From assembly GCA_031406795.1 (NCBI GenBank), contig JANOHV010000151.1:1-64000 (forward strand): a DNA stretch of 64,000 bases, read 5' to 3'. The notes beneath the pieces were generated by a model. The model was not told where the DNA came from and made no database searches. It saw only the letters and a program-made list of their open reading frames with translations. Origin of the DNA: DATDCY01 sp031406795 [NCBI: Candidatus Rokuibacteriota bacterium]. GTDB lineage: Bacteria; JAUVQV01. Below are positions 4,394 through 57,669 of this stretch, piece by piece (the stretch's first letter is position 1; each line of letters starts with the position of its first letter). Position numbers and translations under genes: made by a program.

Positions 4394-5200
4394 CTATTTC
4401 TTCGGGGGAGCCGCGGGCGGTTTCTTCGCCGGCGCCGCGGCAGCCGGCACCGGGATGCCAAGCCGCTGGCGCAGCGCGTCCGGTTCAAGCACGCCGGACT
4501 GGAACCGGCCGTCGGCGAAAAGATACGTCGGCGTGCCGGTGATGCCCTTGGCCGAGAGCAGCACGATGGACTCATCGACCAGCTTGGCGCCCTCTGCGCA
4601 CTGGTTGTCGGACTTGTAGCCGTTCTCGAGATCGTCGAAGCCCTTCTTGTCGCACACCACGGCGATGCACTGCTCGCGCGCGCCCTTGTGCATCGGCAGC
4701 GGGAACATCAGCACTTTGATCTGGATCTCGCCCTTGTCCGCCAGCTCCTTGAGGGCCGCACCGGCCCTCTTGCAGTACGGTCAAAGCGGGTCGGTGATGA
4801 AGTAGACCGACGGGCCCTTGGTGCCGACGGTCATCGCGACGAGGGCGTCGACTTTCTTCAGTTCCTCGGGCGAGAGGCTGTTGAGCGCACTGATTGTCTC
4901 TTCGGTGAGATCCCTGCCGCTCGCGGTTTCGATCAGATGCCCGGTGACCAGGTAGGCGCCGGCCGCGTCGGTGTAGACGATGTTCGGTCGGCCCTGGAAG
5001 CTGACCTGGACCTCGCAGAGGCCCTTGAGCGGGGCCGGCGCGACCTTCTTGACTTCGATCGGGCGCTTGAAGACCTCCAGGAGCTGCTTCCCCACCAGTT
5101 CGGCGGTCGGGCACTGGGCGAACGCCGCGGCCGGCAGCGCCAGCCCCAGCACCGACGCGAGCAGCGCGCGTCGGGGAATGGAAACGCGAGTACAGATCAT
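4394..5200 (-). CDS. dsbC: DsbC-family periplasmic disulfide isomerase, probable selenoprotein (UxxC active site)
   Basis: A single frame runs from ATG 5200 to 4394 if the UGA at 4781-4783 is read as selenocysteine (Sec140), giving 268 residues. Residues 1-28 are a signal peptide (RRALLASVLGLALPAAAFA). The N-terminal domain resembles the DsbC dimerisation domain (VGKQLLEVFKRP, then VQVSFQGRPNIVYTDAAG). The thioredoxin-fold active site reads ITDPL-U-PYC-KR, so UGA sits exactly where DsbC has the first cysteine of CxxC. The fold continues in frame past UGA to the cis-proline motif GTPTYLF and a Pro/Ala/Lys tail. A SECIS-like hairpin lies immediately after UGA. The expected role is disulfide isomerisation or reduction of exported proteins, plausibly for multihaem cytochromes. 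The alternative, a pseudogene stop, is unlikely because about 130 residues of intact homology follow. Confidence 0.88.
4751..4769 (-). promoter_or_regulatory. Bacterial SECIS-like hairpin after UGA of the DsbC gene
   Basis: In the mRNA, a perfect 7-bp stem GAGGGCC/GGCCCTC closes a 5-nt loop GGUGC. The stem starts 12 nt and the loop 19 nt after the UGA. Bacterial SECIS elements are coding-region hairpins just downstream of UGA with a guanine in the first two loop positions; this one fits. Confidence 0.75.
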
Positions 5201-5340
5201 CGGTGACCCCCCTGTATTAGTCGACAAATCAACGTCATACGTGCAACCGTAGCATATCCGACGCTGAAAAAACACTCTTCGACCCACCAGGAGAATATTC
5301 TGGGGATCGGCAGCGAGGGCGCAGCTCGGCATTTCGTTGC

Positions 5341-8778: not shown

Positions 8779-9603
8779 TCAGAAAAGGGAGCTGACCAGC
8801 TCGTCGAGCGCCAGGTGCAGCTCCCGGTCGTCGGTGAGCGTCTCGGTGATTGCCGCCCGACAGGCGGTCCGCGGCGCAACCCCGGCGCGGATCAACTTGC
8901 CGGCGTGGATGAGCAGGCGCGGGCTCGCGCCCTCGGTGAGCCCGGAGTCCCGCAGGCCGCGCGTCATCGCCCCGAGGCGAACCAGCAGGCCCGCCGTCTC
9001 GGCGTCGATCCCTGCTTCGTGCCGCACGATCTCCTCCTCGAGCTGCGCCGGCGGGAACGTGAACTCGAGGGAGACGAAACGCTGACGGGTGCTGGGTTTG
9101 AGATCCTTGAGCACGCTCTGGTACCCGGGGTTGTAGGAGACGGCCAGCAGGAACCCCGGCGGCGCCTTGATCAACTCGCCGCGCTTTTCGATAGGCAGCT
9201 CGCGCCGTTCGTCCGCGAGGGGATGGATGACCACGGTCGTATCCTTGCGCGCCTCGACGATCTCGTCCAGATAGCAGATCGCCCCGGCCCGCACCGCAAC
9301 GGTCAGGGGCCCGTCCGTCCAGACCGTGTCGCCTCCCCGGATGAGGTAGCGCCCGACGAGGTCTCCCGTGGAGAGGTCGTCGTGGCACGAGACGCTGACG
9401 AGCGGCCGCCGCAGCTCCCAGGCGAGCCGCAGCATGAACCGGGTCTTCCCGCACCCGGTCGGCCCCTTGAGCAGCAGCGGCAGGCCGTTGCGGTCGGCCG
9501 CGCGCGCGATCTCCAGCTCGGTGCCCTGCGGCAGGTAGTATGGCTCGTCGGTGATCAGGTGATCGGCCGCCATCTGTGCAAGCGGTTCTTCCGGCTCGGT
9601 CAT
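8779..9603 (-). CDS. MoxR-type AAA+ ATPase (NorQ/CbbQ-like)
   Basis: 274 residues. Walker A is GPTGCGKTR (near residue 45) and Walker B is ICYLDEIVEAR. It also has the pre-sensor-type segment PPGFLLAVSYNPGYQ, seen across the CbbQ/NirQ/NorQ group, and a CbbQ C-terminal-type tail. It is cytoplasmic and expected to assemble as a hexamer that works with the VWA protein encoded 6 bases downstream. A purine-rich stretch (GCGAGGGAGGC) precedes the ATG. The 300 bases upstream hold no other gene. Separation from any known client operon is the unusual point. Confidence 0.85.
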   Translation of the reverse strand: MTEPEEPLAQMAADHLITDEPYYLPQGTELEIARAADRNGLPLLLKGPTGCGKTRFMLRLAWELRRPLVSVSCHDDLSTGDLVGRYLIRGGDTVWTDGPLTVAVRAGAICYLDEIVEARKDTTVVIHPLADERRELPIEKRGELIKAPPGFLLAVSYNPGYQSVLKDLKPSTRQRFVSLEFTFPPAQLEEEIVRHEAGIDAETAGLLVRLGAMTRGLRDSGLTEGASPRLLIHAGKLIRAGVAPRTACRAAITETLTDDRELHLALDELVSSLF

Positions 9604-9906: not shown

Positions 9907-11277
9907 TTACTTCTCGGTCACCTCATAGGCGCCGTTGGCGCCGACGACGATCACCGCGTTGAGATACCGGACCTTGTCGTACCCTTTCACGATGAGCAGG
10001 TCGTAGGCCATCTTGGCAAGGACGCCCGTATTGCAGTGGATCACGACGTTCTTGTCCTTCGGGACCTCTGCGAAGCGCGTCTCCAGCTGGCTCTGCGGAA
10101 TCGGGAGCGCGCCGACGAGTATCCCGTCCACCGGCTGTTCGCGCACATCGACGATGAGCGTCCCTTCAGGCCGTGTGTCCACAATCTTCTTGAAATCGTC
10201 GATGGTGATCTCGCCGGGCTTGAGCGTCTTCACGTACTCGATCTTCGCCGGCGACGCCAGCGGACCTGTTTTCAACTCACCCTTCCAGGAGCCGAGACCC
10301 TGGCGCAGGACCGTCGTGTTCACGTAGCCCCAGCCCCGCACGGTCTTGAATGCGTCGGGGCTCGCCTGCGCCGTGTCGTAGAGGACGATCGGCGCCTTCT
10401 TGTTCACCGGGAACCGGTCTTTCCACGAGGCGAGATCCTGCGCCGGGATGCCGATCGCCCCCGGAATGAACCCTTTTTCAGCCGTCGCGGCGTCGCGCAG
10501 ATCGATCAGAACGAACGACTCCCCGCCCTTGATCCAGTTTTCCAGCGCCACGGGGCCGCTGGCGACCAGTCCGCCGGCTTTCTTCCAGGCGGGCATGCCG
10601 GCGTGGAAGACCTTCACGTTGGTGTAACCCAGCGCCTCCGCCTCACGGGCGGAGAAGGGGCTGAGCGTTCAGGTTTCGCCTGCGCAGTAAAAGATCAGGA
10701 GGGCCCCCTTGTCCGCCGGCAGCAGGGCGGCCGCCTTTTCCTTGAAGCTCGCATACGGCAGACTGACGGCGCCGGGAATGTGCCCCTCGGCGAACATCGG
10801 GCCGGGACGCGAGTCGAAGAGGGCGAATTTCCCCGTATCCGGCCCCTGTGCCGCCAGTTCCAGCATCTGCTCGACCGCGATGATCTTCTCGGCCGCGAGC
10901 TTGAAGGGCTGCTTGACGGCGACCTGAACGGCCACCGGAGCCTTCTCGCCCCCCGTGAACGAGACCGCGATCTCCCGGTCGCGCGTGATCGTCTTGAGCG
11001 CGTCCGCACCGCTGATCTTCTCGCCTTCCTTGACCTTGAGATCATCGCCGTACTTGACGATCCAGACCACGGGGCCGATCGTGACGTTCATGCTCTTGAA
11101 TTCACCGGAAACCGACACCATCTTGCCCCGGAGCACCCCGTCGGCCGCCTGATGGCAGATCTTGCAGGACTCCATGGTGTTCGGCTTGGCGGCCGCGACC
11201 GGCCCGGCCTCCAGGACGAGGGCCAGCGTCGCCGCCCCGGTTGCTGCGACGGCGCTCCACTTCTTGCTCTTCGGCAT
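9907..11277 (-). CDS. Exported triple-rhodanese protein with c-haem motif; probable selenoprotein
   Basis: One frame of 456 residues if UGA at 10669-10671 is read as Sec203. Residues 1-30 are a signal peptide, followed by a single c-haem motif CKICH (38-42), so it is exported. Three rhodanese domains follow. The first has an active loop FYC-AGET-U-TLSP in which Cys198 is the usual catalytic position and Sec203 replaces a second cysteine common in this subfamily; homology continues in frame (AREAEALGYTNVKVFHAGMP). The second has YDT instead of the catalytic cysteine and looks inactive. The third has Cys415 in IHCNTGVLAK. A strong AGGAGGTG sits 7 bases before the ATG, a SECIS-like hairpin follows UGA, and a sigma54 promoter lies ~95 bases upstream. 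A role in periplasmic sulfur or selenium trafficking coupled to electron transfer is inference. Confidence 0.88.
10636..10654 (-). promoter_or_regulatory. Bacterial SECIS-like hairpin after UGA of the rhodanese gene
   Basis: In the mRNA, a perfect 7-bp stem CTCCGCC/GGCGGAG closes the loop CGUGA; the stem begins 15 nt and the loop 22 nt after UGA. Guanine is at the second loop position. Stem length, loop length and the loop GUG match the hairpin in the DsbC gene. Confidence 0.75.
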
Positions 11278-11380
11278 GGGTACACCTCCTGTTGATTGTA
11301 CGTTCCCCGCGCGCGAGCGATCTCAAGTTCCGCAATCCGCTCGCTGCGCCTCGGTCAACACTCCTGTCGCCTGAATCAAG

Positions 11381-11395
11381 AGCAATGATCGTGCC
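11381..11395 (-). promoter_or_regulatory. Sigma54 (-24/-12) promoter of the rhodanese selenoprotein gene
   Basis: The minus strand reads GGCACG-ATCA-TTGCT, with the invariant GG and GC separated by ten bases. Only the first T of the TGGCACGN4TTGCT consensus is missing. The predicted transcript starts near 11371 with a ~95-nt leader. A sigma54 activator gene is divergently encoded 245 bases away. Confidence 0.8.
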
Positions 11396-11612
11396 TTGGG
11401 AAATGGTCGGGACGGTTTCCGGGCGATCCGCCTTGGTGCAGAATTCCCGCCGAGTCGTTGTTAATCAATCGGTTGCGTCACGGGGAGCCGGCGGCGCGAA
11501 CTCGCAACAACCTTCCTTCAGCGCGGAATCGTGTCGGCAGGCGCTCTGGAAACGACGTGCATCGCGGTCGTTCTTGCCGGAATTCCGTTCACTTACGTTA
11601 ACAGGCGTTCAG

Positions 11613-11645
11613 TTTCATGTTACTGTGTTTACGATTAACATGAAA
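11613..11645. promoter_or_regulatory. Perfect 10-bp inverted repeat over the activator start codon
   Basis: TTTCATGTTA and TAACATGAAA are separated by 13 bases; the right arm contains the ATG at 11640. It could be an autoregulatory operator, an enhancer site for the divergent sigma54 promoter ~220 bases away, or an mRNA hairpin that hides the start codon. A related TTACGTTAACA lies at about 11593. Confidence 0.55.
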
Positions 11646-13004
11646 ATTAACGAACTGGTCAAGGATCCGGGATTCCTCGAGAGCGTCCTCGACACGATGA
11701 GCGACGGCCTCATGGTTGTCGATCCCGACGGAACCATCATTTCCTTCAACCCGGCCGCCGAGCGCATCACCGGCTACCGGCTCGAGGAGGTGATCGGCAA
11801 GCCCTGCGCGATCCTCGACACGAGCACGTGCGTCTATCACGAAGGGGACCGCACGACGATTCGCTGCTCGCTCTTCAAGGACGGCAAGGCGGTTCAGAAG
11901 AGCTGCCGCATCCGCGCGAAGGACGGCCGGGAGATTCACCTGCTCAAGAACGCCACGGTCCTGCGCGACGAGAGCGGCGCGATGATCGGCGGCATCGAAA
12001 CGATGACCGACGTGACCTCGCTGGTGATCAAGGAGCGTCAGATCCAGGAATTGGCGGTGGCGATCCGCGAGGAGCAGGCCTTCCAGGGACTCGTCGGCCG
12101 CAGCCCCGGGATGCTCCGGGTCCACGAGCAGATCAAGAACGCCGCGCGCAGCGAGGCACCCGCGGTCGTCCTCGGCGAAAGCGGCACCGGCAAGGAGCTG
12201 GTCGCCGCGGCGATCCACGCACTCAGCCGCCGCAAGGACGGCCCGTTCCTGAAAGTCAACTGCGCCGCGCTCAACGAGCACCTGCTCGAGAGCGAGCTGT
12301 TCGGGCACCGGCGGGGCGCGTTCACCGGCGCGGTGCGCGACCGCCAGGGGCGCTTTGAGGCCGCCAGCGGCGGGACGATCTTTCTCGACGAAATCGGCGA
12401 CATGCCCGCCCCGATGCAGGCCAAGCTGCTGCGGGTGCTCGAAGGCAAAGAGATTGAGCGCGTCGGCGAAAATACCCCGGTCCCGATCGACGTGCGGCTG
12501 GTGTCCGCGACGAACCGCCAACTCGCGGCGCTCGTGGAGTCGGGGACATTCCGCGAGGATCTGCTCTACCGGGTGAACGTCATTCCGATCGTGCTCCCCC
12601 CGCTGCGCGATCGGGTCGAGGACATTCCCCTGCTCGTCTCGCATTTTCTCGCGCGCATCGGGGCGGCGAACGACCGGGCGGCCTTGCGGGTGACCCCGGC
12701 CGCGCTCGAAGCACTGCAGCGATGCCGCTGGCCGGGAAATGTCCGGCAACTGATCAACGCTCTGGAGTACGCCGTCATCACCTCCCGCGGCGAGGAAATC
12801 GACCTCCAGGATCTGCCGGGAAGCCTCCTGGCCGAACCCGCCAGCCTGCCGCCGCTGCGACGACGAGGCACCCTGACCCCGGAGGCGGTCCGCGCCGCCC
12901 TCGCCAGTGCCGGGGGGAGTCGCTCCGCCGCGGCCCGCGATCTCGGCGTCAGCCGAGTGACGCTCTGGAAGCGCATGAACGAGTTCGGCTTGACCGGGCG
13001 CTGA
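11640..13004 (+). CDS. PAS-domain sigma54-dependent transcriptional activator
   Basis: 454 residues from ATG 11640; the ribosome site is weak and a GTG at 11624 is possible. Residues ~8-120 are a PAS domain with several cysteines (GKPCAILDTSTC, RCSLFKDGK, KSCRIRAKDG), a pattern suited to redox or metal sensing. The central AAA+ domain has Walker A GESGTGKE, the sigma54-contact loop GAFTGA and Walker B IFLDEIGD. The C-terminus is a Fis-type helix-turn-helix (AARDLGVSRVTLWKRM). There is no receiver domain, so it probably senses its signal directly. It is divergent from the rhodanese selenoprotein gene, whose promoter is of the sigma54 type, so that gene is the obvious target. An inverted repeat covers its own start. 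Confidence 0.88.
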   Translation: MKINELVKDPGFLESVLDTMSDGLMVVDPDGTIISFNPAAERITGYRLEEVIGKPCAILDTSTCVYHEGDRTTIRCSLFKDGKAVQKSCRIRAKDGREIHLLKNATVLRDESGAMIGGIETMTDVTSLVIKERQIQELAVAIREEQAFQGLVGRSPGMLRVHEQIKNAARSEAPAVVLGESGTGKELVAAAIHALSRRKDGPFLKVNCAALNEHLLESELFGHRRGAFTGAVRDRQGRFEAASGGTIFLDEIGDMPAPMQAKLLRVLEGKEIERVGENTPVPIDVRLVSATNRQLAALVESGTFREDLLYRVNVIPIVLPPLRDRVEDIPLLVSHFLARIGAANDRAALRVTPAALEALQRCRWPGNVRQLINALEYAVITSRGEEIDLQDLPGSLLAEPASLPPLRRRGTLTPEAVRAALASAGGSRSAAARDLGVSRVTLWKRMNEFGLTGR

Positions 13005-17602: not shown

Positions 17603-18874
17603 TCAGATCGGTCCGCCAACCCCGTGACAGAGGGTGATATTGAAGCAACCAGGCGTACCGGGGTTCGACTGGTGGCAGCGGGCGCAGACCGGGGCGTTCG
17701 CCTGGTCTGTCGACTTGTGACGGCTCACGCGCCAGCCGGCGCTGGCGTGCGGGGCACTCCAGCCGTGACAGCCGATATTAACGTGACAGGTCTGGATGGA
17801 CGACCCGCCATCGAGAAAGAGCCCGTGACAGGTCTGGCAATTCGCGAACCCGGGGGAAGCCGCCTTGGCGGCAGCGCCGTGCTGACTCCCGGCCGACCAG
17901 CCTGCGGGGTGGCAGGCGCCGGTGATATGTGCGGCGGTGACGGCGAAACAACTGGGCGTGCCCTTGCCGGCGTGGCAGCCGGCGCATTCGGCGGCCGCGC
18001 TCTGGTTCGTCCGCCGATGCAAGGTGCGCCAGCCCGCGGGGTGGCGACCGCTCCTGACGCCGTGGCAGAGCGTGCTGTTGAAGCAACCGGGCGTGCCGGC
18101 GCTCGATTGGTGGCAGCCGGCGCACGTCGAGGCCTGGCCCTGGTCAGCTTCGGGGTGAGATCGGAGCCAGCCTCCGGGGTGCGGGCTCTTGGCGCCATGG
18201 CAGAGGGTGTTGTTGAAGCAGCCGGGCGCGCCGGGATTCGACCGATGGCAGCCGACGCAGACGGCGGCCTCACCCTGGTCCGTCCGGGGATGGCTTTGCA
18301 GCCAACCCGCGGGGTGGTAGCTTTTCGCTCCATGGCAGAGGGTGTTGTTGAAGCAGCCGGGCGCACCGGCGTTCGTCTGGTGACAGCCGGTGCAGGCGGA
18401 AGCCTGATTCTGGTTCGTCCTGGAATGGCTGCGGAGCCAATCCGCGGGGTGGTCGGACTTGGGCCCGTGGCAGAGACTGTTGTCGAAACAGTTGGGGACC
18501 CGATTGTTGCCCTTGTTGTCGTGGCAGACGGCGCACTCGGCGGCCCTGGAGCGATCCGCCGCGTGCTGCGCACGCCAGTCCGCGCCGGCGGGATGCCCAT
18601 CGGGACCGCCCGGGTGGCAGGCCTGGCCGTCGCGGGAGGTCGAATAGCAGCTGAGCGTCGCGATGCCGCCGCGCAAATCGTCGCCATGGCACTCGGCGCA
18701 CGACGCGGCCCCGGAGTTGCGGTACTCGGCGGAGTGCTTCGGGAAGAAATCCTCCGGGTGTCCCCCATCCGGGTCGAACGGTGCGCCGTGCTTTTTCGAG
18801 CAGCCGACCACGAGCACCGCAAGAAGCGCCCAGCCGATCGTCAGTGCCCGGGAACTCCGCTTTGAATGTGACAT
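17603..18874 (-). CDS. Multihaem c-type cytochrome lipoprotein with alternating CxxCH and CX5CH motifs (paralogue A)
   Basis: 423 residues from ATG 18874 with AGGAGG eight bases upstream. The lipobox LLAVLVVGC is followed by KKHGAPFDPDGGHPEDFF. The body consists of ~45-residue repeats of the form CxGCHQTNAGAPGCFNNTLCH followed by HPAGWLQSH. There are eight canonical CxxCH motifs, six CX5CH motifs such as CFNNTLCH, plus one CX9CH and one CX11CH, so up to 16 haems if all are used. It is probably anchored in the outer membrane as the electron-transfer partner of the barrel encoded upstream. It is a close paralogue of the gene at 20194-21453. The CX5CH spacing is unusual; related Geobacter proteins have a CxxxxCH..CxxCH domain. 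Confidence 0.85.
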   Translation of the reverse strand: MSHSKRSSRALTIGWALLAVLVVGCSKKHGAPFDPDGGHPEDFFPKHSAEYRNSGAASCAECHGDDLRGGIATLSCYSTSRDGQACHPGGPDGHPAGADWRAQHAADRSRAAECAVCHDNKGNNRVPNCFDNSLCHGPKSDHPADWLRSHSRTNQNQASACTGCHQTNAGAPGCFNNTLCHGAKSYHPAGWLQSHPRTDQGEAAVCVGCHRSNPGAPGCFNNTLCHGAKSPHPGGWLRSHPEADQGQASTCAGCHQSSAGTPGCFNSTLCHGVRSGRHPAGWRTLHRRTNQSAAAECAGCHAGKGTPSCFAVTAAHITGACHPAGWSAGSQHGAAAKAASPGFANCQTCHGLFLDGGSSIQTCHVNIGCHGWSAPHASAGWRVSRHKSTDQANAPVCARCHQSNPGTPGCFNITLCHGVGGPI

Positions 18875-18911
18875 ATACAGCACCTCCTGTGTTCTGATGC
18901 CGCGTCGGCGC

Positions 18912-19219
18912 TCAGGGTTTCGGCGGGGCGCCCCCGCCGCGCAAAATCGGGAAAATCACGGAGATGTCCCGGTCTTCGAGCCCGTGCGCGAACGAGAGCG
19001 CGAAGAGCTCCTTCACCGCCGCCGCCGTGAAGAGGGGCCGGTGCAGCGGCGAACGCGTCCTCCTCGCCGCTGACGAACACCGCGAGCTCCCCCGCCGAGA
19101 GGCTCGGCTTTCTCGGGGGTGCGATTCCAGATCAGCAAAGGGTGTCCGGCGGCGGCCAGGCGCCCGGCGACAACGCTGCCGAGGGCGCCGAGCCCGATGA
19201 AACCGATCGTCTCCTTCAT
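18912..19219 (-). pseudogene. Remnant of a 3-hydroxyisobutyrate dehydrogenase-family gene
   Basis: Starting at ATG 19219, the sequence gives a typical NAD-binding N-terminus (IGFIGLGALGSVVAGRLAAA, then WNRTPEKAEPL). It then jumps frame to a mid-protein segment (SAGELAVFVSGEEDAFAA) and again to a C-terminal segment (VKELFALSFAHGLEDRDISV). Most of the ~290-residue enzyme is deleted and the three frames cannot be joined. It lies inside the cytochrome operon between the two paralogous lipoprotein genes and ends in the same GC hairpin seen at 17530. It is a decayed insertion or rearrangement scar. Confidence 0.75.
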
Positions 19220-19286
19220 GCCACGGCCTTTCTCATTCGGGGGCGGAGTGCGCGCCGCGAGCTTCAGCGGCGACGACGCCCTGCCT

Positions 19287-20006
19287 TCACTTGACGATGT
19301 CGTAGAGGAATTTCTTGTTCATGCTCGCGTGGGGATTGTGGCAGAGATAACAGACCCGGCTGCGCGACTTCTCGACGTGATCGAGACTCCCGGGCTGGTC
19401 GTGGCAGGCGCTGCACATCGTCCTGGCGTCGTCGACCGTCAGCGCGGGCCAGCTGGACCCGTGGGGTTCGTGGCAGACAACGCACTTGCCGGCGGCGAGC
19501 GGACCATGAACATAGGGGTAGATCATCGCCAGCTTGCGGTGGCAGGACTTGCAGGTCTCGGACTCCGCATTTACCGCCGGGCGGCGCACGCCGGCATGAC
19601 ACTCGGCGCAGCGACCCTCCAGTACCGGCACGTGGTAGCGGTAGGGGGCCCGTCCCCGGCCACCCGAGCCGTAGATGAAAGTGAGTTTCGCGTCGAGTTC
19701 GCCGACCCGCGCATCCAGGGTGTGGGGTCCCGGACCCGGGGTGAGCTTGGCCGAGAAGGTGTCTCCGAGACGCGTGATGTCGACCACCGGGGCTCCGTCG
19801 AGAAGCAGATTCACGAAACCGGCGCCCGTGGGAATCCGTCCGGCCACGACCACCGTGCCCGCGGGAATGAACGCCCCCGCCGCGGGCATGACGAACTCGA
19901 TCGCCCCGCCGGGCGGCACTGCGGTGTCGGCGGCACGTGAGACCCCGGCGACGACGAAAGCGGCCACCAGAGCGATGGGGGCGAAAACGCGAAAATATAA
20001 ATGCAT
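19287..20006 (-). CDS. Exported five-haem c-type cytochrome with N-terminal Ig-like domain
   Basis: 239 residues from ATG 20006, with no clear ribosome site; an upstream start adding six residues is possible. A signal peptide ends near VSRAA. The N-terminal ~95 residues look like a beta-sandwich (IEFVMPAAGAFIPAGTVVV). The C-terminal part holds five CxxCH motifs: CAECH, CKSCH, CVVCH, CSACH and CYLCH, with the GPLAAGKCVVCHEPHGS pattern of paired-CxxCH domains. It is expected in the periplasm, passing electrons between the inner membrane and the outer-membrane conduit. It is on the same strand as the cytochrome genes either side. Confidence 0.88.
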   Translation of the reverse strand: MHLYFRVFAPIALVAAFVVAGVSRAADTAVPPGGAIEFVMPAAGAFIPAGTVVVAGRIPTGAGFVNLLLDGAPVVDITRLGDTFSAKLTPGPGPHTLDARVGELDAKLTFIYGSGGRGRAPYRYHVPVLEGRCAECHAGVRRPAVNAESETCKSCHRKLAMIYPYVHGPLAAGKCVVCHEPHGSSWPALTVDDARTMCSACHDQPGSLDHVEKSRSRVCYLCHNPHASMNKKFLYDIVK

Positions 20007-20127
20007 ATTCTTATTATAGACCACTGCGGACTATTGATTCGTGCGTTCCGTGACAGCCGGCCGACCGCAGGTCCGAGCGGGTGCTCGGAAGATAAGAATC
20101 CTTGCGCTGCAGTTTCCGGAGCAAACC

Positions 20128-20154
20128 GGAGCCGGGCCGCCATGGCCCGGCTCC
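20128..20154 (-). terminator. Strong hairpin downstream of cytochrome lipoprotein B
   Basis: A perfect 11-bp stem GGAGCCGGGCC/GGCCCGGCTCC with a 5-nt loop lies 40 bases after the stop at 20194. No U-tract is present. It could separate the barrel/lipoprotein genes from the downstream five-haem gene. Confidence 0.5.
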
Positions 20155-20193
20155 GCTCTTCAACCTCTTCGAAGCCGTTTTCAGGTCAATCCG

Positions 20194-21453
20194 TCAATCC
20201 CCGTGACAGAGCGTGCTGTTGAAACAGCCGGGTGTGCCGACGTTCGACTGGTGACATCGGGCGCAGACCGGCGCATTCCCCTGGCTGGTCGTCTGATGTC
20301 GGCCGCCGCCGCCGCGCCAGCCGACGCTGGCGTGCGGGGCGCTCCAGCCGTGACAGCCGACATTGGCGAGACAGGTCTGATTGGCCGATCCGCCATCCAG
20401 CCCAGGCCCGTGACAGGACTGGCAGTTCCCGAATCCAGGGGACAACGCCTTGGCAGCGGCGCCGTGCTGAGTCCCCGCCGACCAGCCCACGGGGTGGCCG
20501 ACACCTGCGCCATGGCAGGCAGAGGCGGTGAAGCAACTGGGCGTGCCCTTTTCAGGGTGACAAGCGGCGCAGCCCGTTGCCGCGCTCTGGGTCGTGCTCT
20601 GGTGTGTGGTGCGCCAGCCCGCGGGGTGCTGCGCGCTTTTCACGCCGTGGCAGAGGGTACTGTTGAAGCAGCCGGGCGTGCCGGCGTTCAATCGGTGGCA
20701 GCCGGCGCAGGTGGAAGCCTGGCCCTGGTCCGTTGCGGAGTGGGATTGCAGCCAGCCCGCAGGGTGCGAACTCTTGGTGCCGTGGCAGAGCGTGTTGTTG
20801 AAACAACCGGGCGCGCCGGCGTTGGTCAGGTGGCAGCCGGCGCAGACGGAAGCCTGGTTCTGGTTCGTTCCCGTGTGGGATTGCAGCCAGCCCGCAGGGT
20901 GCGAACTCTTGGTGCCGTGGCAGAGGGTGTTGTTGAAACAGCCGGGCGTGCCGGCGTTCGTCTGGTGGCAGGCGGCGCAGTTCGAGGCCAGCGACGGGTT
21001 GGTCCCCGCATGGGCGGCTCGCCAACCCGAGGGGTGGCCGGACTTGGGTCCGTGACAGAGGCTGTTGTCAAAGCAGTTGGGGGCCTGGTTGTTGGCTTTG
21101 TTGTCGTGGCAGACGGCGCACTCGGCCGCCTTGGAGGAATCCGCCGAGTGCAGCGCGCGCCAGCCGGCGGGGTGGCCGCCGGGACCGCCCGGGTGACAGC
21201 CCTGGCCGTCGCGGGAGCTCGAATAGCAACTCACCGTCGCGATGCCGCCGAGCAGATCGATCCCATGGCACTCGGCGCATGCCCCGCCACCGGAGTTGCG
21301 GTACTCGGCGGAGTGGTTCGGAAAGAAGTCTTCCGGGTGCCCTCCATCCGGGTCGAACGGTGCGCCGTGCTTCTTCGAGCAGCCGACCACGAGCAGCGCG
21401 AGCAGCGCACAGCCGATCGCAATCGCCCTGGAACTGCGGCTCACTTGTGACAT
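20194..21453 (-). CDS. Multihaem c-type cytochrome lipoprotein with alternating CxxCH and CX5CH motifs (paralogue B)
   Basis: 419 residues from ATG 21453, with GGGAGGTG upstream. The lipobox LLALLVVGC is followed by almost the same mature N-terminus as paralogue A. It has eight CxxCH, seven CX5CH (for example CFDNSLCH, CFNNTLCH, CFTASACH, CLANVGCH) and one CX9CH motif. Repeats such as TNAGTPGCFNNTLCH recur with little change, also at DNA level. The start overlaps the end of the five-haem lipoprotein gene by 13 bases, indicating one operon with that gene and the barrel. It is predicted to be the extracellular or outer-leaflet cytochrome of a porin-cytochrome conduit. Similarity to A extends past the stop codon, so the duplication included 3' flank. 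Confidence 0.87.
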   Translation of the reverse strand: MSQVSRSSRAIAIGCALLALLVVGCSKKHGAPFDPDGGHPEDFFPNHSAEYRNSGGGACAECHGIDLLGGIATVSCYSSSRDGQGCHPGGPGGHPAGWRALHSADSSKAAECAVCHDNKANNQAPNCFDNSLCHGPKSGHPSGWRAAHAGTNPSLASNCAACHQTNAGTPGCFNNTLCHGTKSSHPAGWLQSHTGTNQNQASVCAGCHLTNAGAPGCFNNTLCHGTKSSHPAGWLQSHSATDQGQASTCAGCHRLNAGTPGCFNSTLCHGVKSAQHPAGWRTTHQSTTQSAATGCAACHPEKGTPSCFTASACHGAGVGHPVGWSAGTQHGAAAKALSPGFGNCQSCHGPGLDGGSANQTCLANVGCHGWSAPHASVGWRGGGGRHQTTSQGNAPVCARCHQSNVGTPGCFNSTLCHGD

Positions 21454-21881
21454 ATGCCACACCTCCCCACGTTCTTGCGCCCGTGGCAGGGGAAGCAGGA
21501 GGCCGGATCGAGCTTCCCGTCGGCCCGGTGCTGGGTCAGGTAGTCCCCGCGGTGCGGCGTGCCCGAATCGAAGCGGCCCAGGCGCTTGTCGGAGGGCTTG
21601 ATCTCCTCCTTGTTGCCGTGGCAATCAGCGCAGGACGAAACCTGATGGCACATCTCGCAGGTGCGCTGGTCCCGCAAGGCGACCGCGCCGTGCGATTTCA
21701 TCCACCGCGCGTCGTGATCGGAGGCGGCGCTGTCGGCATCGTGGCAGGAAGTGCAGATCGGCGCGCCCTGCACCTTCTCGGGGTGGACGAAGGCGGCGCT
21801 CTTGGGTCCGGCGCACGCCCCGAGCAGCCCCGCCGCCGTCAACAGCAGCGCGGCCGCGAAGACCATGGTTGATCGGGTCAT
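21441..21881 (-). CDS. Five-haem c-type cytochrome lipoprotein
   Basis: 146 residues from ATG 21881 (a GTG one codon upstream has better spacing to AAAGGAGG). The lipobox is LTAAGLLGAC. Five CxxCH motifs: CTSCH, CEMCH, CADCH, CFPCH and CGICH. The start touches the stop of the barrel gene (TGATG) and the end overlaps the next cytochrome start, so barrel, small cytochrome and large cytochrome are co-translated. This is the size and position expected of the periplasmic-facing cytochrome inserted into an outer-membrane porin. Confidence 0.87.
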   Translation of the reverse strand: MTRSTMVFAAALLLTAAGLLGACAGPKSAAFVHPEKVQGAPICTSCHDADSAASDHDARWMKSHGAVALRDQRTCEMCHQVSSCADCHGNKEEIKPSDKRLGRFDSGTPHRGDYLTQHRADGKLDPASCFPCHGRKNVGRCGICHK

Positions 21882-23149
21882 CACTTGGTGCCTCCTTTCT
21901 TGATCGAGGCGTCGTAACGCCAGAGCACGGCGAGGAGCCCCTTGATTTCACGGTCGAATTCGGGAGTCTCTCCGTACTCGCCCGAGGCCGAAAGCTCGAG
22001 GGACTTGCTCAAGGCGTAGCTCAACCCGAGTTTCCCGGTCGTCGCGATCGTCTCGCCGTTGATTGCGACCCCATACGTCACGTACTCGGCGCCCAAGGAG
22101 AGGTGCACGGGGCCGAAGGCTTTTGTCGCGTGTGCGCTGATCTCCTGGTACCGGTCCTCCTCGGCTTCGCCGTGGACCTGCCGGTAGCCCGCCCCTGCCG
22201 TTGCCCCCGATCTGGCCCAGGAGAGACGCGCGCCGTACGTGCTGCCGTCGCTGCCCCCTTCGTCTGGGGCTCGGAACGCCGCATATTCGCCGGCAATGGT
22301 GAAACCAAGGCCGAGGACGATCTCGACCTCGCCGCCGTACCGGTCGTGCTTCGCGTCTTCGATCGGCAGCAAGGCGCGGTTGAGGGGCTCCTTGAAGTAA
22401 GCGGTGTAGTCGGTGGAGGCCCACGTTGCGGTGAGCCGCACCCGCTTCGCGAACGGGCCGAGAACAAGCCGATAGTCATGACGGGCCCACTTGCTGTCGG
22501 CCACACTGTACAGGGAAGTTCCCGTCAGCTCGACGAGCCGCAGCGGAGCCAGGAAGAGGTCCGAACCGGCCTCTTCGCGCACGTCCTCGCCGTCGTTCTG
22601 CTCCTTGAGGTAGGAGGCTCCCAGACGATAGAGCCCGGCGCGTCCCTGCGAGATGCGGCCGCCGTACAGCAGGTCCTTGGAGCGGCCCCCTTCCTCGACC
22701 TCGACGGGAACCCCGCCGAAGAACGTCACATCGAACCCTGCCGGCAGATCGCTGCCGAGCATCAAACCGTCGAAGACTTCGTGGCGTGCCACCCCTGCGG
22801 TGAGCGAAACCCGCCCCACGCGGGCTTCGGCGTTGCGTTGCGGCGCGCGCCAGCCCAGGAATGCGTACTGCAGCTCGCTGTTGCTCTTGCGCCCCAAAGT
22901 TTCATCAGCCAGGTCGGCCCTGCCCCAGCCGCCGACCCGCAGGTACACGCCCGGCTGCATGAGGTCCTCGGCATTGAGGGTCAGATATTCGTAGGGCAGC
23001 ACATGAGTATTCTCCCCGTCGGTGCCACGCGCGAGAACATAAGTCCGCGACTCGAGCGAGATTTCCGTTGCCGTCGCCGGGGGCGCGCCGACAGCCAGCG
23101 CGGCTCCCAGAAGGGCGAGTGCGGAAAAAGCTGTGACAATCTTCACCAT
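21881..23149 (-). CDS. Outer-membrane beta-barrel of a porin-cytochrome conduit
   Basis: 422 residues from ATG 23149; AAAGGAGGTC is very close, so the adjoining GTG at 23146 could be used. A signal peptide ends at about PPATA. The rest alternates polar and hydrophobic residues in amphipathic strands with aromatic girdles (GLYRLGASYLKE, YRLVLGPFAKRVRLTATWAS, LSLGAEYVTYGVAI) and no haem motif. It is first in the cytochrome operon, as are the barrel genes in porin-cytochrome complexes of Geobacter. It should form the sheath through which the cytochromes carry electrons across the outer membrane. No recognisable similarity to MtrB/OmbB could be judged by eye, so the family may be distinct. Confidence 0.78.
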   Translation of the reverse strand: MVKIVTAFSALALLGAALAVGAPPATATEISLESRTYVLARGTDGENTHVLPYEYLTLNAEDLMQPGVYLRVGGWGRADLADETLGRKSNSELQYAFLGWRAPQRNAEARVGRVSLTAGVARHEVFDGLMLGSDLPAGFDVTFFGGVPVEVEEGGRSKDLLYGGRISQGRAGLYRLGASYLKEQNDGEDVREEAGSDLFLAPLRLVELTGTSLYSVADSKWARHDYRLVLGPFAKRVRLTATWASTDYTAYFKEPLNRALLPIEDAKHDRYGGEVEIVLGLGFTIAGEYAAFRAPDEGGSDGSTYGARLSWARSGATAGAGYRQVHGEAEEDRYQEISAHATKAFGPVHLSLGAEYVTYGVAINGETIATTGKLGLSYALSKSLELSASGEYGETPEFDREIKGLLAVLWRYDASIKKGGTK

Positions 23150-23298
23150 GACCTCCTTTCGGTGCAATCCTGCGTGGTTGAAAAATCCGACATCAGACTT
23201 CGTCCTACGGGAGAAACAATACGCCCTCCCGAAACAATAGCAACCCTGGGTGTCAATTTTCCCATACGCATAGCCTAGTCACGGCGTCGGGAATGCAC

Positions 23299-56025: not shown

Positions 56026-56106
56026 AGCCGATCCTCCCTCCCTGTCGCGCGTCGCACTCCCTTGCCCGAAAAACGCGGGCCGGCATCGACCGACGGGACC
56101 GGTTCA

Positions 56107-56213
56107 GGCCAGGCACCCCTGCGGCACCCGGGAGATCCTGTTTACCGCTGCTTCCTTCCGGACCTGACGGGTTTCACAAGTTCCCGCCGCGCAGGACCAG
56201 ACCATCCCCGGCC
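56107..56213 (-). ncRNA. ffs: Small (4.5S-type) signal recognition particle RNA
   Basis: The minus strand contains the invariant domain IV core GTCAGGTCCGGAAGGAAGCA with the GGAA tetraloop, and GTAAACAGGATCTCCCGGG after it. The ends GGCCGGGG and GCCTGGCC pair to close the rod. It is located between tRNA-Ser and dnaX, its common place. Boundaries are estimated to within about five bases. Confidence 0.93.
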
Positions 56214-56248
56214 TCGCCGGCCGATGTCGGCCCGCGTTCAACCTTCCG

Positions 56249-56341
56249 TGGCGGAGAGAGTGGGATTTGAACCCACGAGGCAGCTTATGACCGCCTACAC
56301 GCTTTCCAGACGTGCTCCTTCGGCCGCTCGGACATCTCTCC
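56249..56341 (-). tRNA. tRNA-Ser (GGA)
   Basis: 93 nt with encoded CCA. The acceptor GGAGAGA/TCTCTCC is perfect, the anticodon loop CTGGAAA gives GGA, and the long variable arm is as expected for serine. Confidence 0.96.
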
Positions 56342-56565
56342 GCCGGCAAAAATAGCTGAATTGGTCGGAAAACGCAAGGAAATCACACGGAGGAGAGTGG
56401 CAAAGCGCACCTCGGACCTAATCCGGTTATGAACTGGACCGATCAGAGAAGGAGCGGCGAAGCCACGACGCAGTACCGGGTTGCGATCCGATCGCAGCCC
56501 GAACTCGAACCGCGAGCCCAAGGGGTCCGCAGCCCTCGATCAATCTAGTCGCGAGCGGTTCGAGT

Positions 56566-56656
56566 TGGCGGAGAGGGTGGGATTTGAACCCACGAGCACC
56601 TTTAGAGCGCTACCGCTTTTCGAGAGCGGCGCCTTCGGCCACTCGGCCACCTCTCC
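56566..56656 (-). tRNA. tRNA-Ser (CGA)
   Basis: 91 nt with encoded CCA. The acceptor GGAGAGG/CCTCTCC is perfect, the anticodon arm CCGCT-CTCGAAA-AGCGG gives CGA, and it has a long variable arm. The 224 bases between it and tRNA-Ser(GGA) contain no gene I recognise. Confidence 0.96.
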
Positions 56657-56690
56657 GTTTTTCAGTATAGCACGGATCGGCGCCGGAGGT

Positions 56691-57164
56691 TCACCGCTGC
56701 AGCCGCCGGGCCCGGCGTTCGCGAAAGAATTCCCGCAGCAGCTCCTGGCTTTCGGCCTCGAGCACTCCGTGGATGATCTCGGCCCGATGGTTCAACCGCG
56801 GGTCATCGAGGATGCGGTAAAGGGTTCGGGCCGCGCCGCCCTTGGGGTCCGGCGCGCCGAAGACCACGCGGGCGACACGTGCGAGGACCAGAGCCCCGGC
56901 GCACATCGCGCACGGCTCGAGGGTGGCGTAGAGCGTTGTGCCAGGGAGTCGGTAGTTTCCCAGCCGCCGGGCGGCGCGACGCAGCGCGACGACCTCGGCA
57001 TGAGCGGTCGGGTCGCATCCGCCGGCCGGCCTGTTGTAGGCGCGTGCGATTACCTCGCCGTCGGCGGCGACGAGAACCGCCCCGATGGGGACCTCGTCGG
57101 CGCGGCCGCCGCGTGCAGCCTCGCGCAAGGCCAGGCGCATATAGTGCTCGTGCGGGAGCCTCAC
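56691..57164 (-). CDS. tadA: tRNA-specific adenosine deaminase
   Basis: About 157 residues from GTG 57164, chosen because family members start shortly before the EHYMRLALREA helix; ATG 57140 is an alternative, and a TTG at 57221 would add 19 residues. Zinc-site motifs are AHAEV and PCAMC, with the catalytic glutamate in the first. It converts A34 to inosine in tRNA-Arg(ACG). That very tRNA gene lies immediately upstream on the same strand (end at 57225), so enzyme and substrate could be on one transcript. Confidence 0.93.
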   Translation of the reverse strand: MRLPHEHYMRLALREAARGGRADEVPIGAVLVAADGEVIARAYNRPAGGCDPTAHAEVVALRRAARRLGNYRLPGTTLYATLEPCAMCAGALVLARVARVVFGAPDPKGGAARTLYRILDDPRLNHRAEIIHGVLEAESQELLREFFRERRARRLQR

Positions 57165-57224
57165 GCCGGCCGGCTTCGAAAAAGATAGGGGACCGCGGCG
57201 GGTTCCGCCGCAGCCCCCCAATCA

Positions 57225-57301
57225 TGGTGCGCCCTGCAGGATTCGAACCTGCGACCTACGGATTCGTAGTCCGTTGCTCTATCCAGCTGAGCCAAGGGCG
57301 C
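57225..57301 (-). tRNA. tRNA-Arg (ACG)
   Basis: 77 nt with encoded CCA. Acceptor GCGCCCT/AGGGCGC, anticodon loop CTACGAA giving ACG, T-arm GGTTCGAATCC. A34 is the substrate of TadA, encoded just downstream. Confidence 0.97.
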
Positions 57302-57385
57302 GTCTAAAGCTCCACCACGTCCCGGCCGCGACGGCCCGGGCCAGGTTCGGAGTATACCCCGAATCCTGAAAATATTGTAGAACAT

Positions 57386-57478
57386 TGGCGGAGAAGCCGG
57401 GATTCGAACCCGGGTTCCCGGTTTCCCAGGAAACTCGCTTAGCAGGCGAGTGCCTTCAGCCAGCTCGGCCACCTCTCC
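57386..57478 (-). tRNA. tRNA-Ser (GCT)
   Basis: 93 nt with encoded CCA. Acceptor GGAGAGG/CTTCTCC (one G-T pair), anticodon arm CTCGC-CTGCTAA-GCGAG giving GCT, long variable arm. Confidence 0.96.
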
Positions 57479-57577
57479 ACATTCGCTGTCGCCGGCCGGG
57501 TGCCATCCCGGCGGTTTCTTCATCAATTCATCGCGCCAGGCTCAACCCCTGCGCCCCCCGCTTCGTGCGCCCGCTTG

Positions 57578-57669
57578 TGGCGGAGGGAGTAGGATTCGAA
57601 CCCACGGTCCCGTTCACACAGGACAACGGTTTTCAAGACCGCCGCCTTCAGCCTCTCGGCCATCCCTCC
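57578..57669 (-). tRNA. tRNA-Ser (TGA)
   Basis: 92 nt with encoded CCA. Acceptor GGAGGGA/TCCCTCC, anticodon loop CTTGAAA giving TGA, long variable arm. It is the first tRNA downstream of the promoter at 57830-57859. The anticodon is not TCA, so it is not tRNA-Sec. Confidence 0.96.

What the first reader, a model, noticed from the sequence alone, without database searches (positions are those of the whole stretch)
9907..11277. Haem-bearing triple rhodanese with selenocysteine in the first active-site loop
Two open stretches lie in the same frame and are separated by a single UGA (10669-10671). Homology to rhodanese continues without a break across it: FYC-AGET-[UGA]-TLSP then EAEALGYTNVKVF. 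Relatives usually have Cys at that place. The protein also has a signal peptide, a CKICH c-haem motif and two further rhodanese domains, one lacking its cysteine. A protein that couples a c-haem to a selenol/thiol sulfur-transfer centre would be unusual, and I know no characterised example of this exact architecture.
Basis: partly seen in the sequence, partly recalled or inferred. Interest (0 to 1): 0.88.

Follow-up and report, generated by a model that had tools for sequence, protein, structure and literature searches.

The report
Exported selenocysteine rhodanese with haem motif
A gene that looks broken by a stop codon is very probably read through with the rare amino acid selenocysteine, giving an exported sulfur-handling protein with a haem-attachment motif; many related bacteria carry the same gene, and its function is still unknown.

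Summary
On the minus strand, window 9907-11277 is one frame of 456 codons with one in-frame UGA (10669-10671, residue 203), encoding an exported protein with one CKICH motif and three rhodanese domains. The UGA reads as selenocysteine, not as a stop or an error. Of 61 homologs aligned, 44 have TGA at this column, 14 Cys, 2 a gap, 1 Asp. A SECIS-like hairpin (fixed stem rule) follows the UGA in 45 of 45 Sec genes, window included, and in 0 of 14 Cys genes. SelB and tRNA-Sec each pass cut-off in 38 of 39 homolog-bearing genomes examined. A second UGA gene about 5 kb away (DsbC-like, UPYC) supports Sec decoding in this organism, whose own genome is not held. New: a sigma-54 promoter site upstream of 11 of 61 homologs, all Sec plus haem motif. 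Sec rhodaneses are already listed in print; my searches did not find this haem-bearing subfamily. Function is inferred: periplasmic reduction of sulfane sulfur or selenium oxyanions.

The parts
9907..11277 (-). Whole gene, UGA read as Sec: signal peptide, CKICH, linker domain, three rhodanese domains; 456 aa
10669..10671 (-). UGA codon = Sec203
   Evidence: 45 of 62 aligned rows, window included, have TGA at this column
10637..10653 (-). Bacterial-SECIS-like hairpin UCCGCC-CGUGA-GGCGGA, loop G at +23 from the UGA
11188..11277 (-). Putative signal peptide (hydrophobic stretch, residues about 7-25; no lipobox, first Cys is residue 38)
   Evidence: hydropathy; no signal-peptide program was available
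11152..11166 (-). CKICH c-haem attachment motif, residues 38-42
10576..10854 (-). Rhodanese domain 1 with loop C198-AGET-U203-TLS
10276..10533 (-). Rhodanese domain 2, no active-site Cys in any of the 62 rows printed
9964..10215 (-). Rhodanese domain 3, Cys415 conserved in 62 of 62 rows; the usual Arg five residues on is Leu here
11285..11290 (-). Shine-Dalgarno AGGAGG
   Evidence: sequence printed
11382..11395 (-). Sigma-54 (-24/-12) promoter-like site GGCACGATCATTGC, 118 nt before the start codon
   Evidence: consensus recalled
11241..13004 (+). Divergent PAS - sigma-54 activator - Fis HTH regulator (ORF as listed; ATG at 11640 is a likelier start)
4394..5332 (-). Second UGA gene: DsbC-like protein, U184 in UPYC (UGA 4781-4783); supports Sec decoding in this organism
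4751..4769 (-). SECIS-like hairpin of the DsbC-like gene (8-bp stem, loop GUG, G at +20)

Best explanation
The gene encodes a genuine selenoprotein: an exported triple-rhodanese protein in which the first domain's active-site loop carries a Cys198-x4-Sec203 pair, the second domain is catalytically dead, and the third keeps a lone sulfurtransferase cysteine (Cys415). In this clade one c-haem motif sits near the mature N terminus, and transcription is likely sigma-54 dependent. SHOWN by sequence: the Sec decoding signature, the architecture, its conservation, the promoter-site enrichment. INFERRED: Cys415 takes sulfane sulfur (from polysulfide or thiosulfate) as a persulfide; the Cys198/Sec203 pair reduces it, or a selenium/tellurium oxyanion, closing to a selenenylsulfide; periplasmic cytochromes, through the N-terminal haem where present, reopen it. 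I put the identity as a selenoprotein at about 0.95 and this particular catalytic role at about 0.3; the confidence below is for the identity and anatomy.
For: Same-column TGA in 30 of 43 rows (window included) and 15 of 19 further rows; the seven nearest relatives, L135-L141, 45-47% identical, all have TGA and CxxCH. Hairpin rule (pairs taken from the window's fold: at least 4 consecutive pairs closing on the loop, G at +22 to +24): 30 of 30 Sec genes, 0 of 10 Cys genes; applied unchanged to new rows, 15 of 15 against 0 of 4. Rate over all codons of the Sec genes, the Sec codons included: 216 of 12,898. Stem pair 18-30 is CG 22, GC 5, TA 2, TG 1; sliding the partner by 1-3 columns lowers paired cells from 159 of 180 to 49-113. 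SelB over cut-off in 38 of 39 and tRNA-Sec over cut-off (68.3 bits or more) in 38 of 39 genomes, these 39 being those with the best 42 matches out of 71 matching genomes. Cys198 60 of 62, Cys415 62 of 62; on a 59-row tree the Sec state changes 9 times, at least 6 forced by starred branches. Second Sec-type gene in the window: 20 of 20 fetched DsbC relatives have Cys where the window has UGA. Strict sigma-54 sites: 11 in 18,048 nt of sense upstream sequence (300 nt of 61 homologs), 0 antisense, 0 in 168,294 nt of coding sequence, 3 in 972,318 nt of control loci.
Against: The window's own genome is not held, so its SelA/B/C/D are untested. G126 has no SelB and G368 no tRNA-Sec over cut-off although both carry the Sec form; incomplete assembly is a guess. 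Controls: SelB passes cut-off in 2 of 14 and tRNA-Sec in 5 of 14 control genomes, and genomes with the Cys form also have both, so the machinery does not discriminate. The loop-G part of the hairpin rule is met by all 14 Cys genes too; only the stem separates the groups, and 5 of the 14 Cys genes come within one pair of it. The window's hairpin alone is only moderately stable against shuffles (z -1.44 to -2.34). 18 of the 29 other Sec+haem-motif homologs lack the strict sigma-54 site. Rows are related, so counts are not independent. Haem binding, export and activity are unmeasured. No constant neighbour names a substrate. AlphaFold without an alignment failed (pLDDT 33.8).
Confidence: 0.88

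Rival explanations
1. Pseudogene or sequencing error: a TGC/TGT Cys codon mutated or misread as TGA, leaving two useless halves.
For: Cys is the residue in 14 of 62 family rows; no reads are available to check the base.
Against: 44 of 61 homologs, from other genomes, have TGA at the same column and none of the 61 has TAA or TAG there; coding signature intact downstream; hairpin in 45 of 45 Sec rows against 0 of 14 Cys rows.
Confidence: 0.02
2. True stop giving a short 202-residue haem protein, with the downstream ORF translated separately from the GTG at 10617.
For: Both halves are open and the second has a GTG start.
Against: The stop would cut rhodanese domain 1 inside its active-site loop; 14 homologs with Cys run through this column uninterrupted.
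Confidence: 0.03
3. Selenoprotein, but acting as a redox or metalloid sensor, chaperone or thiol-repair protein rather than a sulfane-sulfur or selenium reductase; the haem is structural or absent.
For: Haem motif missing in 24 of 62 rows; no constant operon partner in 35 neighbourhoods; a C-x4-U pair is closer to thiol-redox centres than to a single-Cys sulfurtransferase (inference).
Against: Cys415 in a rhodanese loop is kept in 62 of 62 rows, which argues for sulfur transfer.
Confidence: 0.35
4. UGA reassigned (for example to Trp) in this organism.
For: A TGA appears to be read through in two genes of the window.
Against: TGA also ends genes here, for example the CbbQ-like gene at 8781; the residue aligned with the two UGAs is Cys in the Cys-bearing relatives, not Trp.
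Confidence: 0.01

Closest known systems
Rhodanese-like domain-containing selenoprotein 'form 1' (PF00581, motif UxxS, example WP_010941598.1; table rows seen as passages of PMC13188914, and without the motif in PMC9312934)
   Same: PF00581 domain, one Sec, motif U-x-x-S (window U203-T-L-S206).
   Different: The table rows I saw give no architecture, haem motif, domain count or function; the example sequence is not held, so membership is likely but unproven.
TsoB, rhodanese/DsbD fusion-like selenoprotein (NF045694, motif UxxxxU, two Sec; row in PMC13188914)
   Same: Its two Sec, spaced x4, may correspond to window C198-x4-U203 (inference from spacing); its profile matches residues 129-245 with 50.1 bits.
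   Different: Far below its cut-off of 805 bits; two Sec, named as a DsbD-like fusion. The describing paper (PMC12013261) is not held.
NF041203 rhodanese_LYCAU (rhodanese 'form 3', CxU)
   Same: Sec in a rhodanese protein.
   Different: 46.9 bits against a cut-off of 115; model length only 126; motif CxU rather than CxxxxU.
ExtH of Geobacter sulfurreducens (rhodanese-family lipoprotein, 49.0 kDa; PMC5877670, PMC6148476, passages)
   Same: Exported rhodanese protein of similar size from a metal-reducing bacterium.
   Different: Its sequence is not held and I did not search for the other ext genes, so homology is untested; the window protein has no lipobox.
ExtKL of Geobacter (pentahaem c cytochrome with a predicted Sec; PMC1914089, PMC6148476, passages)
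   Same: c-haem motifs and a predicted Sec in one exported protein.
   Different: Five CXXCH motifs and no rhodanese domain mentioned; the window protein has one CxxCH and three rhodaneses.

Membership tests
Rhodanese domain family (PF00581) | Pfam score over the gathering cut-off | tested here: met
   121.8 bits against 22.2, three stretches
Bacterial selenoprotein | In-frame UGA aligned with Cys or Sec in homologs | tested here: met
   45 Sec (window included), 14 Cys, 2 gap, 1 Asp of 62 rows
Bacterial selenoprotein | Stem-loop just downstream of the UGA with a G in a small apical loop | tested here: met
   the feature is stated in passages of PMC1088965
Bacterial selenoprotein | SelB and tRNA-Sec in the genome | not testable with these tools
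   own genome not held; in genomes of homologs 38 of 39 for each
Rhodanese-like selenoprotein form 1 | PF00581 with UxxS | tested here: met
   U203-T-L-S206; Ser or Thr at 206 in 42 of 43 rows
Rhodanese-like selenoprotein form 1 | Homology to the listed example WP_010941598.1 | not testable with these tools
   sequence not held
TsoB (NF045694) | Score over curated cut-off 805 | tested here: not met
   50.1 bits
rhodanese_LYCAU (NF041203) | Score over curated cut-off 115 | tested here: not met
   46.9 bits
c-type cytochrome (mono-haem) | CxxCH on an exported protein | tested here: met
   CKICH 38-42 after a hydrophobic leader; CxxCH or Cx4CH at this place in 38 of 62 rows
c-type cytochrome (mono-haem) | Haem covalently attached | not testable with these tools
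   needs haem stain or mass spectrometry
ExtKL cytochrome selenoprotein | Five CXXCH motifs | tested here: not met
   one CxxCH, three rhodanese stretches
ExtH | extHIJKL gene order and sequence homology | not tested
   ExtH sequence not held; ext genes were not searched for in the neighbourhoods

The most novel reading that the evidence does not exclude
A sigma-54-controlled periplasmic enzyme in which a c-type haem feeds electrons into a Cys-x4-Sec selenenylsulfide centre of a rhodanese domain, with a second rhodanese cysteine loading the sulfur or selenium: a haem-selenol sulfur/metalloid reductase of which I found no description.
Probability: 0.2. Interest if true: 0.8.

Novelty: new variant of a known kind. 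Interest (0 to 1): 0.52.

Why it matters
The family is common where sampled (119 of 192 genomes drawn from one class have a match at E <= 1e-40), yet ordinary stop-codon rules split the gene in two, and no NCBIfam model that matches the protein reaches its cut-off (11 families listed). If the haem and the selenol exchange electrons, it would be a new way to couple cytochromes to sulfane-sulfur or selenium-oxyanion chemistry. The sigma-54 site gives a direct handle for finding the inducing condition.

Tried and rejected
Searching genome contigs with the window protein itself gave nothing; a conserved 2-oxoacid oxidoreductase subunit of the window gave 80 named relatives, 14 of which were used as genome handles. 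A search of the class of G001 (2 genomes) was empty. Of those 14 genomes 6 match, only over one domain or so. The plasmid search gave 33 records, none covering 80% of the protein; the 10 listed are 25-31% identical. Structure prediction of the single protein was unusable (pLDDT 33.8), so no fold search was run. Clustering of neighbours found no constant partner: 20 loci of haem-motif homologs plus the window and 15 further loci, 12 known to lack the haem motif and 3 not classified. The window's sigma-54 activator has a counterpart next to the gene in 1 of those 20 loci (L191). A sigma-54 response regulator and a PAS histidine kinase lie close by in 6 of the 15. Multihaem ORFs lie near the gene in 2 of the 15 (L204 with a NapC/NirT-like pentahaem, L206). 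Pseudogene, true stop and code reassignment were rejected (see rivals).

Rows dropped: L115, L129, L134 from the hairpin counts (no Sec or Cys at the column); L119, L126, L134 from the tree. Homolog rows are not independent (L108 and L113 are near-identical). The pairs of the hairpin rule came from the window's own fold, after seeing the first set; only one search is held out. The sigma-54 pattern was tried strict and loose; within 450 nt one search shows 12 homologs with the strict site (one, L141, 416 nt away and not counted) and 3 with loose sites only.

In one search the TGA of DsbC hits L168 and L169 lies near the C-terminal end, not at the catalytic Cys; one search shows Cys there in 20 of 20.

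Papers: passages only (find results) of PMC13188914, PMC9312934, PMC1088965, PMC1794560, PMC5877670, PMC6148476, PMC1914089, PMC12545173, PMC3543383, PMC7539508; PMC12013277 was searched inside for three terms without an occurrence. Search listings. The statement that I did not find the haem-bearing Sec triple rhodanese in print rests on those searches alone, in an open-licence library. Recalled, from no call: the sigma-54 -24/-12 consensus and general rhodanese chemistry.

Full report
Observation. Read with UGA as selenocysteine, window 11277 to 9907 gives 456 residues with a single UGA at residue 203. The protein has a hydrophobic leader, CKICH at residues 38-42, and three rhodanese stretches that together score 121.8 bits. 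The best stretch, residues 142-234, runs across the UGA. Third-position GC is 0.85 and 0.87 on the two sides. An AGGAGG precedes the ATG.

Family. The window's genome is not held. A first search of genome contigs with the protein found nothing, so I used a conserved oxidoreductase subunit to reach relatives: 80 loci kept, of which the best five are assembled genomes labelled Deltaproteobacteria (three), Nitrospinota and Thermoflexia. Fourteen served as genome handles. In 395 genomes drawn from the phylum of the best hit, 71 match at E <= 1e-12; the best 42 matches, in 39 genomes, were fetched. In 192 genomes drawn from the class of G312, 119 match at E <= 1e-40; 104 of the 140 matches listed contain exactly one TGA, 36 no stop, none TAA or TAG (recount). 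Where the TGA lies was checked only in fetched rows.

Column 203. In the first 43 aligned rows (window included) the column is Sec 30, Cys 10, gap 2, Asp 1. With 19 more rows it is Sec 45, Cys 14, gap 2, Asp 1 of 62. The seven nearest relatives all have Sec and CxxCH, and the window joins them in a starred clade of eight (100/100). On a 59-row tree the Sec label needs nine changes, at least six forced by starred branches.

SECIS. Downstream of the UGA the window can form UCCGCC-CGUGA-GGCGGA with a loop G at +23, inside a longer stem (-23.0 kcal/mol and z -2.34 for 47 nt; z -1.96 and -1.44 for 60 and 76 nt). A rule taken from this fold (at least four consecutive pairs closing on the loop, G at +22 to +24) is met by 30 of 30 Sec genes and 0 of 10 Cys genes; over all codons of the Sec genes the rate is 216 of 12,898. 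Applied unchanged to new rows it is met by 15 of 15 Sec and 0 of 4 Cys. The loop G is present in all 14 Cys genes as well, so the stem makes the difference, and five Cys genes have three of the four pairs. Pair 18-30 occurs as CG 22, GC 5, TA 2, TG 1. Sliding the partner by 1-3 columns lowers paired cells from 159 of 180 to between 49 and 113. The Cys genes encode similar residues here and still fail, so the stem is unlikely to be a mere by-product of protein conservation.

Machinery. In the 39 genomes, SelB exceeds its cut-off in 38 (not G126) and tRNA-Sec in 38 (not G368), the best tRNA-Sec match per passing genome being 68.3 bits or more. All 14 control genomes ring weakly for both, presumably through elongation factors and tRNA-Ser; over cut-off are 2 of 14 and 5 of 14. 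Genomes with the Cys form also have the machinery, so this supports Sec decoding in the group but does not separate the two forms.

A second case in the same window. The DsbC-like gene 4394-5332 (minus) has UGA at residue 184 where the first catalytic Cys belongs: UPYC. Pfam finds DsbC_N and thioredoxin-like domains. All 20 fetched relatives have Cys there, and 21 of 21 rows keep the second Cys. An eight-pair hairpin with loop GUG and a G at +20 follows (z -2.70 for 48 nt, -1.70 for 60 nt). A DsbG-like and a thiol:disulfide interchange selenoprotein with UxxC are already listed (PMC13188914, passage). Two separate Sec-type genes within 6 kb make Sec decoding in this organism very likely.

Anatomy of the active sites. 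Cys198 (60 of 62 rows) lines up with the rhodanese cysteine of a solved structure (6mxv). Sec203 is five residues on, giving C-x4-U, and Ser206 completes UxxS. Domain 2 has no Cys in the active-site stretch of any printed row. Domain 3 keeps Cys415 in 62 of 62, but the usual Arg five residues later is Leu or Met exactly in the window's eight-row clade. The haem motif (CxxCH, or Cx4CH in four rows) is present in 38 of 62 rows (30 Sec, 6 Cys, 2 gap) and absent in 24 (15 Sec, 8 Cys, 1 Asp). So neither depends strictly on the other.

Regulation. Between the gene and a divergent PAS-sigma-54 activator lies GGCACGATCATTGC, 118 nt before the start codon; it is the only strict match in the window on either strand (0.6 expected from 50 shuffles). 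The 300 nt upstream of 61 homologs hold 11 such sites in the sense direction in 18,048 nt, none antisense, none in 168,294 nt of coding sequence, and 3 in 972,318 nt of control loci. All 11 belong to Sec plus CxxCH proteins; 18 of the 29 other proteins of that type lack the strict site. These rows are related, so the number of independent origins is smaller. A sigma-54 response regulator with a PAS histidine kinase lies near 6 of 15 other homologs. Neighbours otherwise vary.

Function. Shown by sequence: a protein with an export leader, one haem motif, a C-x4-U loop, a conserved lone Cys in domain 3 and a sigma-54-like site. Inferred: reduction of sulfane sulfur or selenium/tellurium oxyanions, with the haem as electron entry where present. 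No neighbour names a substrate, and no structure model was usable. I give this role about 0.3.

Comparison with what is known. A 2026 review table lists five forms of rhodanese selenoprotein; form 1 (PF00581, UxxS, WP_010941598.1) fits the motif here (PMC13188914, passages; also PMC9312934). The rows I saw say nothing of haem or triple domains, and the example sequence is not held. No NCBIfam model that matches reaches its cut-off. The Geobacter cytochrome ExtKL is a different haem selenoprotein (PMC1914089, PMC6148476, passages). I therefore call it a new variant of a known kind: a listed Sec motif in a sigma-54-linked, haem-bearing subfamily of which I found no description, within the limits of the searches named.

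Noticed in passing
window 4394-5332 (-): DsbC-like gene with UGA in place of the first catalytic Cys (UPYC) and a SECIS-like hairpin; 20 of 20 fetched relatives have Cys.
   Followed up: yes
window 11382-11395 (-) and upstream of 11 of 61 homologs: Sigma-54 -24/-12-like site ahead of Sec rhodanese genes with a haem motif.
   Followed up: yes
L194, L195, L197, L198, L206, L207: A sigma-54 response regulator and a PAS histidine kinase lie near the rhodanese gene in 6 of 15 further loci.
   Followed up: partly
window 17603-23167 (-): Three ORFs with 8, 5 and 8 CxxCH motifs followed by an ORF with a weak Porin_4 match (below its cut-off), perhaps a porin-cytochrome electron conduit.
   Followed up: partly
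window 9964-10215 (-) and L135-L141: The third rhodanese domain has Leu or Met in place of the usual Arg only in the window's clade.
   Followed up: partly
L107, L108, L110, L113: Homologs with a Cx4CH haem-type motif in place of CxxCH.
   Followed up: no
L115, L129: Two homologs with a shortened first loop and no Sec.
   Followed up: no
window 56104-57669 (-): Small SRP RNA and five tRNA genes (four Ser, one Arg), with tRNA-Asn at 48.6 kb.
   Followed up: no
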